A stretch of 34,299 bases of DNA from Methylococcaceae bacterium (lineage in GTDB: Bacteria > Pseudomonadota > Gammaproteobacteria > Methylococcales > Methylomonadaceae), in NCBI GenBank assembly GCA_021736705.1, contig JAIPFI010000011.1:1-34299 (forward strand), written 5' to 3'. This document shows, piece after piece, positions 14,951-34,202 of this stretch. The position numbers were made by a program, and so were the translations under genes. Below the pieces are notes generated by a model. The model searched no databases, was not told the origin of the DNA, and was given only the letters and a program-made list of their open reading frames with translations. Numbering within the stretch: position 1 is the stretch's first letter; the number at the start of each line of letters is the position of its first letter.

Positions 14951-15687
14951 AGCGGACTTTTCTCGCTACTTAATAAAGCTATCCCTTTAAATACCAATTC
15001 AGTATCAACAACAGCCTCTAACTTTAAAATATCCGCCAAAAACAGCGCATCCCCACCAGTTAAAATTAATTGCGTTGTTTGCGCACATTGCATAAGTCCC
15101 GCCTCAATAAAACCTTTAATAGCATAGAGGCTACCACTATAAATAGCTGCTTGTGTAGAATTAGCCAAACCTTGCTCATGGGGTTCAGTGCAATAGCTCA
15201 AGTCTGCCGTACCTTTATTTAAAGATTGCTTCAGTAAAGTTAGTCCCGGCATAATCAAGCCACCTAAGTGCCACCCGTGCTCGTCAATAACATCCAAAGT
15301 AATCGCGGTACCAAAATCAACAATACAAAGAGGCGCTGAATAATGCTCATACGCTCCCAGCATGGCTAGCCAGCGATCAACACCTAACTTTTCTGGATTA
15401 AGATAGCCATTACTTACTCCACAGGAAAATTTTTCCGAATGGATTTCTTGTATCGGACAATTCGACCATACCAGCCTAATTATATTGATAAGTAACTGCT
15501 TAATTTCAATAGAGCCAACACAAGCAATATAAATACAGTCAGGCATAGCTAGTAACCGCCAAGCAGAGATTAATGTGGCTGAAAAATCATCTTGATGATG
15601 TGCAATAGCAGCAAAAGTATCCAACTTATCAAGTTCCTGTATCGCCCATTTGACACGAGTATTCCCAATATCGATTAATAAGTTCAT
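14947..15687 (-). CDS. coaX: Type III pantothenate kinase
   Basis: First enzyme of coenzyme A synthesis. The 246-residue protein has the ASKHA-fold signatures of type III kinases: LLIDIGNTRVKWA at the N terminus, LGVDRWLAMLGAY in the middle, and the phosphate-binding DFGTAITLDVID, followed by GGLIMPGL. It overlaps birA by 4 bases (ATGA) and the SPOR gene by 4 bases. Length is typical. Confidence 0.94.
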   Translation of the reverse strand: MNLLIDIGNTRVKWAIQELDKLDTFAAIAHHQDDFSATLISAWRLLAMPDCIYIACVGSIEIKQLLINIIRLVWSNCPIQEIHSEKFSCGVSNGYLNPEKLGVDRWLAMLGAYEHYSAPLCIVDFGTAITLDVIDEHGWHLGGLIMPGLTLLKQSLNKGTADLSYCTEPHEQGLANSTQAAIYSGSLYAIKGFIEAGLMQCAQTTQLILTGGDALFLADILKLEAVVDTELVFKGIALLSSEKSPL

Positions 15688-28722: not shown

Positions 28723-28745
28723 GGCTATCAATTTAAGACGGGACA
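28723..28745 (+). repeat. Left terminal inverted repeat of the DDE element
   Basis: Begins GGCTATCAATTTAAGACG and pairs with 30404-30426 with one mismatch over 23 bases. It contains the transposase stop codon (28733-28735). Confidence 0.9.
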
Positions 28746-30363
28746 TTTAGCAATTTCAATGGGTTAGAAAAAACACGTTTACTACTATTTCTAGGCAGCG
28801 GTAACTCGCCCATTTCATTAAGTAACCATGAAAATAAGTCTGGAAACTCGGTATCAAATAAACGCATTGCGGCGGTTGTGCCATCCTCGCGTTTGACTCC
28901 GTAATTATGAATGACCGTTAATGCGTTTAATCGCCTTTCAGTCAACCCTCGTCCATTGTGATACATTTGTGATAAACAGCCATTTCGCCCTTCAACAGCG
29001 GATGAACTGCGCTGAAACTGTCTTGCCATATTTTCGGCTAATGTCAGCCATTGTTGCATCTGACTTATTGATAACTTTTCACTGAAGGGGGCTGCTTTGA
29101 GCTTATCAGACGCGACTTCCCATGCTTTTCTATAGCTTGCCTTTGAGTTGCAATTTTTAGTTTGTTCCATCTTTTGATGCCAATAAACCACGGGTAATAA
29201 TGTTGAAGTCAACCAAAGCTCGGTATCCGTATCAAGCTCTAAGCTTTGCAAGGTTTCGCGTACCCAAAGCCACCAAAAACTAATGGATACGGCGAGTGGT
29301 TGTATCTGATTTCGAAACTTTTTCATCATGCCTTTGTGGTCATTAATCTCTTGCTCTTCCGCTATCTTTTCAAAGGCTTGCGCTCGTAATTCGAGTTGAT
29401 GTTCAACTTTTTCAGCATTGTTAATGCGGCTATCATTGAGCGAAAACGGATGAACCTCATCGCCAATGCCTTGTAGGTTTTCGTGATAGTCCGCTTGCGT
29501 TTTCTTAGCTTTTTCAAGCTCTTTTTCAGCCGTTATTCGCGTTGCTTTAAGATCACTAATTTTCAGCATGGTTGCGGTTTTAGAAACTTTGGACTCTTTA
29601 GTTTTCGCAGCTTGTAGCTGTTTTTCAGCATTTGCCGCACGTCTGCCTATTTTTGCGCCTAACCAGCGACTCATATCTTGTTGAGCATGGAAAAGATCCG
29701 CACCTGAATCGCAGTCAAAACCTGTCACTGCCACTTTTATCAGAGCCTTAGCGCGATCACTAATGGCGTGATTAACTTCAATGCCTAATGACTCTAAACG
29801 TGGCGAGACCTTCTTGTACCAAGTCTCATAGCACCTATCATCACTAATATCTTCCAACAAAAGATAGCCAGAGCGTAAGTCCATTAAAACTAAAATCATA
29901 AAGTTGCCGAAAAAAGTCTCATCCAGCCCCGCCACAACTTTACGCCTTTGTTTCTTCACACTTTTTTCGCATTCTTCCTGAAATAGCGGCAATAAAACTT
30001 CCATTTTATTGATTTGAGTTCGCAAGGCGGCAGGTGATACGCCTACATGAGTATCAATTCGAATCATTTTAAAAAAAAGCGATAAGGTATCCGCACCTAC
30101 ACCTGCCTTCAATCCAAAGACATACAAAGCAGCAAACACCAGCAGTCTTAGCCACGCGCTACCTGCTTCGGTTTCCCACAATGATGACTTAGGATGTTTA
30201 TTCCGCTTCTCTTGTGCTTGAAGGTGACGGTGCGCAGTGCTTTTTGAGCGACCAATAATTGAAGCCAGTTTACGAACAGTTTGTTTGCCTGTTGTTGCGA
30301 TTTCAGTGATAATCGCGTTGCTAGCTGCGCGTATTTTCTGTGTTGTTCTGTTTTTTTTGTCAT
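28733..30363 (-). CDS. DDE transposase (DUF6399-like), apparently expressed through a -1 shift on A8
   Basis: The track shows two ORFs (28733-30181 and 30148-30363). The larger frame stays open upstream to 30398 and encodes a helix-turn-helix (TVRKLASIIGRSKSTAHRHL), but has no ATG, GTG or TTG before it. The only good start, ATG at 30363, lies in the other frame and is followed by ACAAAAAAAACA, so a -1 shift at codons 3-4 gives one protein of about 543 residues. Putative DDE residues are the D in VAGLDETFF, the D in AISDRAKALI and the E in SSAVEGRNG. The EGRNG-HNGRGL tail is what I know from DUF6399-type proteins. Family naming is from memory; the transposase role is well supported by the terminal repeats. 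Confidence 0.75.
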
Positions 30364-30403
30364 TAACTAATGATACAAGAATACAGTGGCTAGCCCTTCA
30401 TTT

Positions 30404-30426
30404 TGTCCCGTCTTAAATTGGTAGCC
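30404..30426 (-). repeat. Right terminal inverted repeat of the DDE element
   Basis: On the minus strand begins GGCTACCAATTTAAGACG; it mirrors 28723-28745 with one difference. Its outer edge joins directly to the IS5-family fragment. Confidence 0.9.
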
Positions 30427-30662
30427 AAAAGTTTCGCACCATCCCGCTCTTGAACCGAAGCCGCTGTAACCACAACAACCATAATTAACCCAAGTGTATC
30501 AACAAGGATATGGCGCTTTCGACCTTGAATTTTCTTCCCGGCATCAAAGCCTTTTATACCTGCTAAAGCAGTTGTTTTAACGCTTTGGCTATCAATAGAA
30601 CCTGCTGTAGGGTGTTTATGACGCCCCGCCTTCTGTCTGACTCTAGCACGTAAATTTTGTTA
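30427..30662 (-). pseudogene. IS5-family transposase fragment
   Basis: Not in the ORF track. The minus strand reads about 77 residues including LRARVRQKAGRHKHPTAGS, DSQSVKTTALAGIKGFDAG and GRKRHILVDTLGLIMVVVV, then TAASVQERDGAKLL. This is the central DDE part of IS5-family transposases (first Asp in IDSQSVKT, the GRKRHILVDT block). The N-terminal part is missing to the right and the C-terminal catalytic part is missing to the left, where the DDE element begins. It is a dead remnant and shows that the region has taken successive insertions. Confidence 0.85.
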
Positions 30663-30696: not shown

Positions 30697-30951
30697 ATGT
30701 ATAAAATTCACTATAAAAAGTCAGCCGCCAAAGCTCTGGCTAAATTACCCGTTAAAATCGCAGATCAGTTTATAGATGCGTTTGAGCGGGTGTCGCTTAA
30801 ACAGGACGAGCAACTAGATATTAAGAAACTACAAAATAGAGATGGCTATCGCCTGCGCATAGGTTGGTATCGTGCGTTATATCGCGTGATTGATGAGGTT
30901 TTAGTGATCGAGGTGGTGGCGATTGGTTCAAGAGGAGATATTTACAAATGA
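30697..30951 (+). CDS. RelE/HigB-superfamily mRNA interferase toxin
   Basis: The 84-residue basic protein begins YKIHYKKSAAKALAKLPVKIADQF and continues with LQNRDGYRLRIGWYRALYRV, the RelE/ParE-fold pattern with the arginines that in RelE contact mRNA. The last part (VIEVVAIGSRGDIYK) matches the conserved final strand. The ATG is 7 bases after a CATAAT -10-like motif with TTGAAT 16 bases before it, so the transcript may be almost leaderless. It overlaps the antitoxin by 4 bases (ATGA). Toxin-first order resembles HigBA. Confidence 0.88.
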   Translation: MYKIHYKKSAAKALAKLPVKIADQFIDAFERVSLKQDEQLDIKKLQNRDGYRLRIGWYRALYRVIDEVLVIEVVAIGSRGDIYK

Positions 30952-31307
30952 GTGTGCAATTTATAGAAAACAAGGGCGTGCCTGAGTATGCGGTTATACC
31001 CGTAGATCAGTATCAGTCATTACTGGATAAGGCAGAAGCTTATGATGATGTGGTTGCCTTTGATAAGGTGGTGGCTTGCGCTGAAGAAACGATACCTGCA
31101 CACATGGTGAGTCGGCTGGTTAAGGGTGATAATAAAATAAAAGTCTGGCGTGAGTACCGGCAGATAACCCAGGCTCAGTTAGCAGAACGGGCAGGGGTGG
31201 CGCAGGCTTATATTGGGCAGATTGAAACAGGTCAGCGCGATGGCACAGTTAAGGTTTTGGTGGTGATTGCTGAGGCGTTAGGGATTAGCTTGGATGATTT
31301 GGTGTAG
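30948..31307 (+). CDS. HigA-like antitoxin with Phd-like N terminus and Xre HTH
   Basis: The 119 residues divide in two. The N-terminal segment MSVQFIENKGVPEYAVIPVDQYQ resembles Phd/YefM antitoxins. The C-terminal Cro/C1-type helix-turn-helix is EYRQITQAQLAERAGVAQAY, followed by IGQIETGQRDGTV and ALGISLDDLV. It should neutralise the upstream toxin and repress the shared promoter; that is family knowledge. Overlapping start and stop (ATGA) with the toxin gene supports coupled translation. Confidence 0.87.
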   Translation: MSVQFIENKGVPEYAVIPVDQYQSLLDKAEAYDDVVAFDKVVACAEETIPAHMVSRLVKGDNKIKVWREYRQITQAQLAERAGVAQAYIGQIETGQRDGTVKVLVVIAEALGISLDDLV

Positions 31308-31631
31308 GTGGAGGGCGGGTATTTAGTTCAATTCTTAGGTGCTTTCTTTTTATTTACTTTTCTTTATGTTTTTTGAAAGCAATACTTGGGCTCTTTTGAA
31401 AAATGAATGGGTAACTTATATTTTTCAGTAATTCAATAAGAGTTTATGCATTTACTATAGGAATTCAGAAAGATAAACAATTGGGCGGTCTCTGCGTTTT
31501 TTAAGATAGTTTTCGCCTAAATTATTTAATAGGTAATCAGGTAAAACTAACACATAGTAGAAAAACAAGATGGCAGACAAAAAAATACCTCCGCCAGAGA
31601 AATCAGATAAATACAGGTCAAGATAGTTAAA
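31308..31631. other. Non-coding stretch between the antitoxin and the structured RNA locus
   Basis: No supported gene. A 6-bp inverted repeat GCTTTC/GAAAGC (31341-31346 with 31375-31380) encloses a pyrimidine-rich loop on the plus strand and could terminate the toxin-antitoxin transcript. An 18-codon ATG ORF (31570-31626, MADKKIPPPEKSDKYRSR) is too short to call. One end of the IS110-like element should lie in this stretch, but I cannot place it. Confidence 0.4.
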
Positions 31632-31820
31632 ATTTTGTTGCTAAAGTAGCACTCTATATTAGAGCATCAATGGTGTGCTATTCACATAATAGAAGTCGAT
31701 AAAATCGCTTCATTTATTTTATTAGTGACTTCATGCTTAATATAAAAAGTAAGCTCAGAGTAGACTGTCTAGTTAGTTTACAAGTCATGAGTCATGGGAA
31801 CACTAAATTAGCAACAAAAT
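31632..31820 (-). ncRNA. Candidate structured guide (bridge-type) RNA of the IS110-like element
   Basis: A perfect 13-bp inverted repeat, ATTTTGTTGCTAA (31632-31644) and TTAGCAACAAAAT (31808-31820), closes a 189-base stretch that starts 12 bases after the transposase stop. Four stem-loops can be drawn inside, on the transposase strand. TAGCAC/GTGCTA is at 31647-31652 with 31675-31680. A compound stem is GAAGTC/GACTTC (31692-31697 with 31727-31732) plus ATAAAAT/ATTTTAT (31699-31705 with 31716-31722), leaving a 10-base loop. GCTTA/TAAGC pairs 31735-31739 with 31750-31754, and GACTGT pairs with ACAAGTC with one bulge (31763-31768 with 31780-31786). IS110-family elements encode a bridge RNA in a non-coding end. 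Transcription is unproven. Confidence 0.5.
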
Positions 31821-31832
31821 AAAACAAGTATA

Positions 31833-32819
31833 TTAAGCAAATCGAGCTACATCGAATTCCTTATTATTTCTCAGCATATAATAGACAGTACGCGCGATCT
31901 TATGCGCGATTATATTCTTGGATGCCTTTGAACTGTGTTGCTGCTTGACCTTTTCATTATAAGTACGACCAGACTCAGAGTACCTAATAAAACAAATTGC
32001 CGCGACTTGAAAAGTCTTTCGCAAACGACTATTGCATTTATTTTTACCTTTATCTCCGTAATTTTTTCCTGCCGAGACTCGGCTCGGCGGAACAAAACCG
32101 CAGTACGAACTAAAATTTCCGACTGATTGAAATCGATCAACGTGCTCTATTTCTAATATTAATGCAGAGGCTAACATTTCTCCTACTCCAGGAATTGTTT
32201 GCAACAAGCCCAGTTCACTCTCTCTATAATTTTTTAACTCGCATTGTAAATAAGAATTAAGACTTTTAATTTGCGTCTCGCATAATTCAAGTAATATTTT
32301 TCGCGATTCGGCAAGCATTTGAGTGGACTCTTCCGAAGATCCTACCCCAGATAAAAAATGCTGATGATCAACTGTTTTGCTTTGACGCACTAAATCAGAT
32401 CGAAATTGCTGCAAAGAACAAATCCCCCGATGCAAATCTCTAATTGATCTAAACTGCTGATTACAAATATGAGATTCGGGGAATAAGCCTGCCATTAAAA
32501 GCCTCGCTATTTTCTCAGCATCACCCGCATCAGATTTATTCTTTCTCCGACACTGATTGCCAATAGCCTCAGCATCCCCCAGCATCACATTAAATCCTTG
32601 CTCTTGTAACAAATCAACTAACCAGTACCAGTTATAAGTGGATTCGACGCCAATAATCAAATTCTCCTTATATTGAGCCAAGCATTCCAAGAACACTAAG
32701 CTATCAGTATGTTTAACCTCGACAAGCATGACCACTTGCCCGGTCAATGAGTTAATTACACAAATGGTTGAGCTAGATTTATGGAAATCAATACCGCAAT
32801 AATATTGCGGATTACTCAT
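31833..32819 (-). CDS. IS110-family DEDD transposase/recombinase
   Basis: The track ORF is extended into alpA. The true start is most likely the ATG at 32819, which has GGGAG 6 bases upstream, giving about 328 residues. The RuvC-like DEDD domain shows D in YYCGIDFHK, E in IIGVESTYNW, and DD in KSDAGDAEKIA. A helical segment follows, then the C-terminal Tnp domain with LQTIPGVGEMLASALILEI and VPPSRVSAGKNYGDKGK, whose Ser is the candidate catalytic serine known from the family. The first 8 bases overlap the alpA end. It ends 12 bases before the structured 189-base region. Confidence 0.92.
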   Translation of the reverse strand: MSNPQYYCGIDFHKSSSTICVINSLTGQVVMLVEVKHTDSLVFLECLAQYKENLIIGVESTYNWYWLVDLLQEQGFNVMLGDAEAIGNQCRRKNKSDAGDAEKIARLLMAGLFPESHICNQQFRSIRDLHRGICSLQQFRSDLVRQSKTVDHQHFLSGVGSSEESTQMLAESRKILLELCETQIKSLNSYLQCELKNYRESELGLLQTIPGVGEMLASALILEIEHVDRFQSVGNFSSYCGFVPPSRVSAGKNYGDKGKNKCNSRLRKTFQVAAICFIRYSESGRTYNEKVKQQHSSKASKNIIAHKIARTVYYMLRNNKEFDVARFA

Positions 32820-33015
32820 CGTTAGCTCCCGCTCGCTGAGTGATACCAAAATGCTTATCGACATCCTCTTTATACCAACCAACACAGCGGGCAGACAACG
32901 CAATGCTCTCAGGAAAATTACCTGCCTCAATCAACCTATATACAATTGATCGACTAATACCATAACGACTCACAATATCACTCATACGATAAACTAAAAC
33001 GTGTTCTGAACTCAT
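32812..33015 (-). CDS. AlpA-family DNA-binding protein (excisionase-like)
   Basis: The 67 residues form a compact AlpA/MerR-like winged helix: YRMSDIVSRYGISRSIVYRLIEAGNFPESI, then VGWYKEDVDKHF. AlpA proteins act as transcription regulators or recombination directionality factors of integrative elements. GGAG lies 9 bases before the ATG. The coding end overlaps the IS110-type gene by 8 bases, and that gene's ribosome binding site is inside alpA, so the two are made from one message. It is not a part of the usual single-gene IS110 layout. Confidence 0.88.
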   Translation of the reverse strand: MSSEHVLVYRMSDIVSRYGISRSIVYRLIEAGNFPESIALSARCVGWYKEDVDKHFGITQRAGANDE

Positions 33016-33261
33016 AAGAAAACTCCAATTAAAAAAAGAAAATTAGAACTTAAAAGCTTTACTCGCATAAAAAAAAACATTAATATATTTCTGCAACGAA
33101 ATAAAATTAATTTTTTATACAAAAATATAAAAACTTAAATAAGCTCCATAAAAGCGCATATGAGACCTCGAAGTCTCAGTGCACTTTTTCATTATATCAA
33201 TTTTCATTTTTTTACCAAAATCACCCATTCTCCCTGCCTGAACCCTTAAAATGTAACCCCT
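33016..33261. other. AT-rich region upstream of alpA with a palindrome
   Basis: No gene is visible. It should hold the promoter of alpA-transposase (minus strand) and the other end of the IS110-like element. GCAACGAAATAAAA at 33093-33106 repeats, with one mismatch and in the same orientation, GCAACAAAATAAAA at 31811-31824 on the other side of the two genes. The near-perfect palindrome TGAGAC-CTCGAA-GTCTCA occupies 33161-33178. Confidence 0.45.
33161..33188 (+). terminator. Palindromic hairpin followed by a T run
   Basis: TGAGAC (33161-33166) and GTCTCA (33173-33178) with a 6-base loop, then GCACTTTTT. It looks like a rho-independent terminator on the plus strand, but no plus-strand gene precedes it in the window. 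It could instead be an operator or part of an element end. Confidence 0.4.
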
Positions 33262-33804
33262 TTGTTACTATCTAATTATTGCAGCAAACACTTCAAATAC
33301 CTTGATTTCATCGACTGTGGTGAAACTCAAGAAAAAAATCAGCTTGTCAACTCACCAAAAGATCCACGTACAATCGCGGCTATTGAAAGTCTAGCAACAG
33401 GTATTTTAGACCCTGTCGTTGAGCAATTTGGTGAGCTAAAACTGACTTACGGGCTCTGCGCTAACGATTTATTACTGCAGATCAAAAAGCGCCCTTCTCC
33501 TGGGATTGCGCCGCAACTCGACCAGCATGCAGGCTATGAAGTAAATTCCAAAAACAAGCGCATTTGTCAACGCGATGGATTTGCTTGTGATTTTTATGCG
33601 CTCAATACCGACTCTTTAGCTGTCGCCAAATGGATCGTGATGCACTTGCCATTTGACCGACTGTATTTTTACGGTAAAAATAGACCGATTCATATTAGTA
33701 TTGCCCCTGAAAACAGCTTTGCCATTACGCTTTTAGAGCAATCTCCGACAGAGCGGCGCATACCGAAAAACATTAAAAAAGCGCAGTTTTTGCTGAAAGA
33801 GTAA
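33262..33804 (+). CDS. Peptidase M15/hedgehog-fold-like protein, unassigned
   Basis: The 180-residue frame begins at a TTG with an in-frame stop 12 bases upstream, so no ATG start is possible in front of it and no good ribosome site is seen; the 5' end may be damaged. The segment LLSNYCSKHFKYLDF resembles the opening of M15-like proteins. His89 (DQHAGYEV), Asp110 (GFACDF) and His144 (RPIHISI) have the order of zinc ligands in the Hedgehog/DD-peptidase fold, so a metal-binding domain is possible. It is 5 bases upstream of the methyltransferase fragment, implying a shared operon. Function unknown; the family call is tentative. Confidence 0.55.
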   Translation: MLLSNYCSKHFKYLDFIDCGETQEKNQLVNSPKDPRTIAAIESLATGILDPVVEQFGELKLTYGLCANDLLLQIKKRPSPGIAPQLDQHAGYEVNSKNKRICQRDGFACDFYALNTDSLAVAKWIVMHLPFDRLYFYGKNRPIHISIAPENSFAITLLEQSPTERRIPKNIKKAQFLLKE

Positions 33805-33809
33805 AATCA

Positions 33810-34202
33810 ATGGATGCCACACAATTCAATCAACTGATTAAGTCGGTTAAGCTCGGTAAATTAGTCGGCAATGCCCGCTATCTGCATATCAGTGCCTTTC
33901 ATGAAATACCTTCTGAATTAAAAGACTTTATTATTTTGATTGCTAATGCGTTAAAAATACCTGCAAACGATTGGAATATTATTAAGCTACATACCCAGCA
34001 ATTCCGGCTTTCTTATCTGAATTACCCCCAGTTTTACGAAGACTCTTATCCCCCTTTACATAACAGCATTACCGTTGATTTAGAACATAAAACTCAGAAA
34101 ATAGCGAATTATACGGCTACTGAAAATGCGCCTATTTTGCATCGTAAAGAGCTGTTTATCCAAGGTAAACGCATTAAAAGGACTTTAAAGACAAAGAGAT
34201 AG
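33810..34202 (+). pseudogene. N-terminal fragment of a DNA phosphorothioation-associated methyltransferase-like protein
   Basis: The 130 residues resemble, from memory, the start of the family named DNA phosphorothioation-associated putative methyltransferase. The matching parts are KLGKLVGNARYLHISAF near the N terminus, then LSYLNYPQFYEDSYPPLHNSITVDL and NAPILHRKELF. That family is usually several hundred residues long, so this is only about a quarter of it. It stops at a TAG 32 bases before the start of an ISAs1-type transposase, so truncation by that insertion is the simplest reading. No dndABCDE gene is in the window. Confidence 0.6.

What the first reader, a model, noticed from the sequence alone, without database searches (positions are those of the whole stretch)
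31632..31820. IR-closed, stem-loop-rich 189-base region behind an IS110-type gene: candidate bridge RNA
A perfect 13-bp inverted repeat encloses a stretch that can fold, in transposase sense, into about four further stems, including a 6 + 7 bp compound stem with a 10-base loop and a 6-bp stem with a long loop. It begins 12 bases after the transposase stop. IS110-family recombinases are known to use an element-encoded bridge RNA of comparable size with loops that read donor and target DNA; in IS1111-like members it lies downstream of the gene. A tandem AGTCATG pair (31783-31796) also sits inside. The inverted repeats and stems are seen directly; the guide role is inference.
Basis: partly seen in the sequence, partly recalled or inferred. 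Interest (0 to 1): 0.82.

Follow-up and report, generated by a model that had tools for sequence, protein, structure and literature searches.

The report
Guide-RNA domain behind an IS1111-type transposase
The 189-base inverted-repeat-closed stretch just behind this IS110/IS1111-type transposase gene most likely makes the part of a small guide RNA that tells the jumping gene where to insert: most of its relatives carry a helix-closed RNA domain at the same place, and in them it matches the DNA flanking each insertion.

Summary
In detail: a perfect 13-bp inverted repeat starts 12 nt after the transposase stop (chance about 1e-4 at that place). The 'further stems' are not above chance; the fold excess comes from the repeat alone. 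The transposase is a deep orphan (best relatives about 35% identical) of the IS1111-like group, whose elements have a short left end and a roughly 400-500-nt 3' non-coding region. In most relatives tested (many phyla) a 10-15-bp, strongly covarying helix begins 0-20 nt after the stop and closes an RNA domain. That domain reads the insertion site: about 5 nt equal the host DNA left of the element (65 relatives, 0 of 20,000 permutations as good), and about 8 nt are complementary to element end plus right flank (48 relatives, 0 of 20,000), as published for IS1111 seekRNAs. The window has the same architecture and, at a candidate right end (TATGTGTTA, identical to its sister clade), an 8-nt complement in the domain (joint chance 4e-5, post hoc). 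Covariance models of relatives do not recognise the window, the element's ends are inferred, and transcription is untested. Verdict: a new, divergent member of the IS1111 seekRNA/bridge RNA kind. Unusual: an AlpA-like gene overlaps the transposase start, seen in no other relative examined.

The parts
31833..32819 (-). IS110-family DEDD transposase/recombinase, 328 aa (P0001), IS1111-like subgroup
   Evidence: Pfam DEDD_Tnp_IS110 and Transposase_20, NCBIfam transpos_IS110 above cut-off, IS621 in PDB, conserved D11, E59, D97, D100, S249
32812..33015 (-). AlpA-like HTH protein, 67 aa, overlapping the transposase start by 8 nt
   Evidence: Pfam Phage_AlpA E 3.8e-11; ORF; no such pair in 128 IS110 relative loci or 29 AlpA loci
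31632..31820 (-). candidate guide-RNA domain (first domain of the 3' non-coding region)
   Evidence: closing helix; same position as the covarying, insertion-site-matching domain of relatives
31808..31820 (-). 5' arm of the closing helix, 12 nt after the stop codon
31632..31644 (-). 3' arm of the closing helix
31772..31779 (-). AAACTAAC: candidate right-target guide, complementary to GTTA|GTTT at the candidate right end; lies in CTAACTAG (31769-31776), cf. CTAACTGG of the sister clade
   Evidence: inference
31666..31674 (-). CCAT|TGAT: weak candidate left-target guide and core (3 of 6 positions match the candidate left flank)
   Evidence: inference, weak
31678..31684 (-). TGAATAG, resembling TTGA[TA]TAG of the sister clade
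31548..31556 (-). TATGTGTTA: candidate right end of the element, identical to the sister clade's right end
   Evidence: lies 19 nt from where an IS3-type remnant starts at 31529
33150..33200 (-). candidate left end: TTGATATAATG (33190-33200) followed by a strong hairpin, as in relatives' left ends (TTGATAATCAT/TTGATACTCAT plus hairpin)
   Evidence: hairpin z -3.9; inference

Best explanation
The region is the first domain of the 3' non-coding region of an IS1111-type insertion sequence and encodes the target-reading part of its guide RNA (seekRNA/bridge RNA). The RNA would be read through from the transposase gene on the minus strand. The 13-bp repeat is a helix that closes the domain right after the stop codon. 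Inside, one strand (candidate AAACTAAC) would pair with the element's right end plus right flank, and a second short stretch would match the left flank, so that the transposase-RNA complex finds the insertion site. Shown here: the repeat, its position, and that relatives have a covarying helix-closed domain there which matches their insertion sites. Inferred: that the window's RNA is made, is bound by the transposase, and uses these letters as guides.
For: Helix in relatives: above shuffles in most of 44 loci, with arms of different sequence, 5' arm 0-20 nt after the stop; sister clade 12 of 14 pairs with two-sided changes, 97.9% paired against 28-42% when slid; compact form 14 of 14 outer pairs with two-sided changes; model R2 hits 35 of 45 held-out loci, one hit each, directly after the transposase stop. 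Guides in relatives: left flank matches at -1 to -5 in 92, 77, 71, 63, 48% of cognate against about 28% of non-cognate pairs, 0 of 20,000 permutations, also within strata and with 54 distinct guides, lost on shifting; right-flank complement 6.25 of 10 against 4.20, 0 of 20,000. Same order (top-strand complement first, bottom-strand match second) as published for IS1111 seekRNAs (PMC11187229). Window: helix at +12 (chance 1e-4); right-end motif and 8-nt complement (joint chance 4e-5); transposase nests with IS1111-like relatives.
Against: Covariance models do not recognise the window: R1 best hit is at the right place but E 0.16, R2 none there, R3 none there and a stronger chance hit elsewhere at 15372. 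The left guide match is only 3 of 6. The domain is larger (189 nt) than in relatives (about 70 or 150 nt) and has no demonstrable inner structure. No second copy and no close homologue, so no covariation within its own lineage. The right-end motif was chosen after seeing relatives and window, so its chance value is optimistic; subterminal repeats are at best 6 bp.
Confidence: 0.83

Rival explanations
1. The region is a structured tail of the transposase mRNA or a decayed non-coding region: the helix was inherited but the RNA is no longer a working guide.
For: Inner fold not above chance; covariance models fail; single copy; IS remnants crowd the flank.
Against: The transposase frame is intact with its catalytic residues; a perfect 13-bp helix in decaying AT-rich DNA is unexpected; a guide-like complement to the right end is present.
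Confidence: 0.1
2. The repeats are DNA recombination sites: a short invertible segment worked by a Piv-like DEDD invertase, or the terminal repeats of a miniature transposon.
For: IS110 recombinases are related to the Piv invertase (PMC11187229); the repeats flank 163 bp next to the recombinase gene.
Against: In relatives the arms differ from element to element and from the subterminal repeats, and change in step as RNA pairs; no second copy in the genome; no convincing target duplication by inspection.
Confidence: 0.04
3. Chance inverted repeat without function.
For: A 13-bp perfect repeat within 300 nt turns up somewhere in 20% of shuffled windows.
Against: At this exact place the chance is about 1e-4, and it is the place where relatives carry such a helix.
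Confidence: 0.03

Closest known systems
IS1111-type seekRNA elements (ISEc11, ISKpn4, ISPa11; Siddiquee et al. 2024, PMC11187229)
   Same: Transposase class; RNA-coding region downstream of the gene; guide order (top-strand complement before bottom-strand match); RNA size range (70-170 nt published, 189-nt domain here).
   Different: Orphan transposase, AlpA-like gene in front, larger helix-closed domain, no clear 11-13-bp subterminal repeats found; RNA not shown.
IS110 bridge RNA of IS621 (Durrant et al. 2024, PMC11208160)
   Same: DEDD recombinase family; RNA with loops reading target and donor.
   Different: IS621 encodes its RNA upstream of the gene (left end); here it is downstream.
Sister clade on marine gammaproteobacterial plasmids (L103-L106, L144, L154-L156, L160) and compact clade across many phyla (e.g. 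L010, L035, L042)
   Same: Closing helix right after the stop; CTAACTGG...TTGATTAG-like motifs; right end TATGTGTTA (sister clade); left end TTGATA plus hairpin.
   Different: About 30-34% transposase identity; models built from them do not score the window; no AlpA gene; 400-500-nt non-coding region against about 285 nt here.

Membership tests
IS110 family (DEDD recombinases) | RuvC-like DEDD domain plus PF02371 C-terminal domain with catalytic serine | tested here: met
IS1111 group | long non-coding region downstream of the transposase gene | tested here: met
   285 nt from stop to candidate right end; relatives 400-500 nt
IS1111 group | subterminal inverted repeats of 7-17 bp | tested here: inconclusive
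   only GAAAAA/TTTTTC at the candidate ends; no significant left-right repeat
IS1111 group | transposase groups with IS1111-like members | tested here: met
   tree, 96/92 support with the sister clade inside the 3'-NCR group; long branch noted
IS1111 seekRNA / bridge RNA | structured RNA encoded in the non-coding region | tested here: inconclusive
   closing helix chance 1e-4, interior at chance, models of relatives not matched
IS1111 seekRNA / bridge RNA | guide stretches matching both sides of the insertion site | tested here: inconclusive
   right side 8 nt, left side 3 of 6; ends themselves inferred. In relatives met
IS1111 seekRNA / bridge RNA | RNA co-purifies with the transposase and is needed for movement | not testable with these tools
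   needs experiment
Rfam RNA families | match at gathering score | tested here: not met
   ten relatives also without a match to this domain
Piv-type DNA inversion system | repeats act as DNA recombination sites around an invertible segment | tested here: inconclusive
   arms of relatives behave as RNA pairs; no second orientation could be looked for
Miniature transposon (MITE) | several copies bounded by the same terminal repeats | tested here: not met
   single copy (the draft genome is 86% complete)

The most novel reading that the evidence does not exclude
An RNA-guided IS110-type recombinase that is translationally coupled to, and controlled by, an AlpA-like DNA-binding protein, which could act as a directionality or expression switch on a guide-RNA-directed recombination reaction. 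The AlpA gene overlaps the transposase start and lies inside the candidate element ends.
Probability: 0.2. Interest if true: 0.75.

Novelty: new member of a known kind. Interest (0 to 1): 0.52.

Why it matters
It shows that the tnp-proximal, helix-closed RNA domain of IS1111-like elements can be located from sequence alone, right after the stop codon, and that its guide letters can be read against insertion flanks in dozens of unrelated elements. That makes guide assignment testable element by element, also for an orphan transposase without close homologues. RNA-guided recombinases are of interest as genome-editing tools; an AlpA-coupled one would be a new control arrangement.

Tried and rejected
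Rfam search: no family. Close homologues: none above about 35% in 85,000 species genomes, plasmids, phages, viral contigs or 237 genomes of its own family. Third copy of the repeat arm upstream of AlpA (TTTTATTTCGTTGC): not significant (4 of 60 shuffles). 40-nt block shared with contig C103: real but confined to that block, no wider homology. Empty-site comparison through the neighbouring gene 33262-33804: intergenic DNA not conserved, so no boundary. First attempt at flank matches in seven sister-clade elements found nothing, because the junction base and LE were left out; superseded. Sequence-level homology of the window to relatives' RNA by covariance model: not established. The motif count (chance 1e-4) used degenerate motifs partly seen in the window first, so I give it little weight. 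Structure prediction was not run: it would not bear on the RNA question.

Full report
What is there. The window lies in a 2.84-Mb draft gammaproteobacterial genome (G000:C33; class taken and the relatives found). A 328-aa IS110-family transposase (31833-32819, minus strand) is preceded by a 67-aa AlpA-like gene (32812-33015) whose last codons overlap the transposase start. Twelve nucleotides after the transposase stop begins a perfect 13-bp inverted repeat with arms 31808-31820 and 31632-31644. A repeat of that length whose 5' arm starts within 22 nt of the stop occurs in about 1 of 10,000 shuffles. The RNA fold of the whole region is better than shuffles (z -3.5), but the interior alone is not (z -0.97); so only the helix, not the four inner stems, stands out. 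Rfam has nothing.

Relatives. No homologue above about 35% identity was found in genomes, plasmids, phages or viral contigs. The relatives that exist are IS1111-like: pairwise comparison gives elements of about 1.5 kb with a left end of about 100 nt before the gene and a right end about 400-430 nt after it, with subterminal repeats such as TAGCCGGCC/GGCCGGCTA and ends TGAAAATCAT... and ...ATGGGTG. In a tree the window protein joins a sister clade on marine gammaproteobacterial plasmids (96/92 support, but on a long branch); its catalytic positions D11, E59, D97, D100 and the serine are kept, and IS621 is its nearest solved structure.

The helix is a family feature. In the sister clade RNAalifold, unprompted, predicts one helix, from just after the stop to about 150 nt further on. 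Twelve of its 14 pairs show changes on both sides, 97.9% of cells are paired, and sliding the partner by 1-3 columns drops this to 28-42% (first alignment). In compact relatives a 10-15-bp helix closes about 70 nt; even on a ragged alignment all 14 outer pairs have two-sided changes. A scan anchored on the stop codon finds such helices above shuffles in most of 44 relatives, and in the window (z 4.2). A model of the compact domain hits 35 of 45 loci that were not used to build it, once each, a few nt after the stop, with no other hit in 253 kb. Some of these held-out loci are close relatives of training loci, so 35 is not a count of independent cases.

The domain reads the insertion site. In 65 relatives with a recognisable left end, the nucleotides just 5' of the domain's TGA motif were compared with the host DNA just left of the element. 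They agree at positions -1 to -5 in 92, 77, 71, 63 and 48% of cognate pairs, against about 28% of non-cognate pairs. None of 20,000 permutations did as well, also not within strata of left-end type, nor with one element per distinct guide (54); the signal is lost when the window is shifted by one. In 48 relatives the 10 nt before the domain's TGG hairpin were compared with the reverse complement of the right end plus right flank: 6.25 matches against 4.20 by permutation, 0 of 20,000; several rows there are visibly out of register by one base, so this is a low estimate. A right-flank complement followed by a left-flank match is the order reported for IS1111 seekRNAs (PMC11187229). That paper and PMC11208160 established RNA guidance and the 3' location; what is added here is the position, covariation and flank read-out in these relatives. 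I could not see the published figures, so the domain may already be drawn there.

Back to the window. The architecture fits: helix, CTAACTAG (31769-31776) and TGAATAG (31678-31684) in the order of the sister clade's CTAACTGG and TTGA[TA]TAG. TATGTGTTA at 31548-31556 is identical to the sister clade's right end, and the 8 nt AAACTAAC at 31772-31779 are complementary to its last four bases plus the next four. Both together occur in 4 of 100,000 shuffles, a value that is optimistic because the motif was picked after looking. A left end is suggested at about 33200 by TTGATATAATG followed by a strong hairpin (z -3.9), as in relatives; the best left-guide match to it is only 3 of 6. The candidate right end lies 19 nt from the start of an IS3-type remnant. 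Covariance models of relatives fail on the window: R1 has its best local hit at the right place but at E 0.16; R2 and R3 have none there, and R3 has a stronger hit at 15372 that I take for chance. So sequence-level membership is not shown; position, helix and guide logic carry the argument.

AlpA. Neither 128 loci of IS110 relatives nor 29 AlpA loci from the same bacterial family contain the other gene nearby. The overlap suggests translational coupling. Whether AlpA controls transposition is speculation.

Verdict. Most likely the target-reading domain of an IS1111-type guide RNA in a divergent, single-copy element; a new member of a known kind, with an unusual accessory gene.

Noticed in passing
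window 32812-33015 (-): AlpA-like gene overlapping the start of the IS110 transposase; no such pair in 128 IS110 relatives or 29 AlpA loci.
   Followed up: partly
L010, L035, L042, L060 and many others, first ~70 nt after the transposase stop: Compact helix-closed RNA domain with readable left and right guides across many phyla; no Rfam family.
   Followed up: yes
L103-L106, L144, L154-L156, ~180-490 nt after the stop: A second structured RNA domain in the sister clade, with a loop CTATATGTGTTTG resembling the element's right end TATGTGTTA, perhaps the donor-reading part.
   Followed up: partly
window 31374-31429 and 31478-31529: End remnants of ISL3-type and IS3-type insertion sequences, repeated in genomes of the same genus.
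   Followed up: partly
window 31554-31585 and G000:C103:8142-8172 (L002): A block of about 40 nt overlapping the candidate right end recurs once elsewhere in the genome, between cysM-like and another gene; unexplained.
   Followed up: partly
window 30697-31307 (+): ParE-like toxin gene followed by an overlapping HTH gene, a likely toxin-antitoxin pair.
   Followed up: no
window 33810-34202 (+): Fragment like DNA phosphorothioation-associated methyltransferase (TIGR04096, below cut-off), behind a gene (33262-33804) conserved in the genus.
   Followed up: no
window 28733-30181 (-): Large ORF with DUF6399, next to what looks by eye like a remnant of another transposase around 30400-30660.
   Followed up: no
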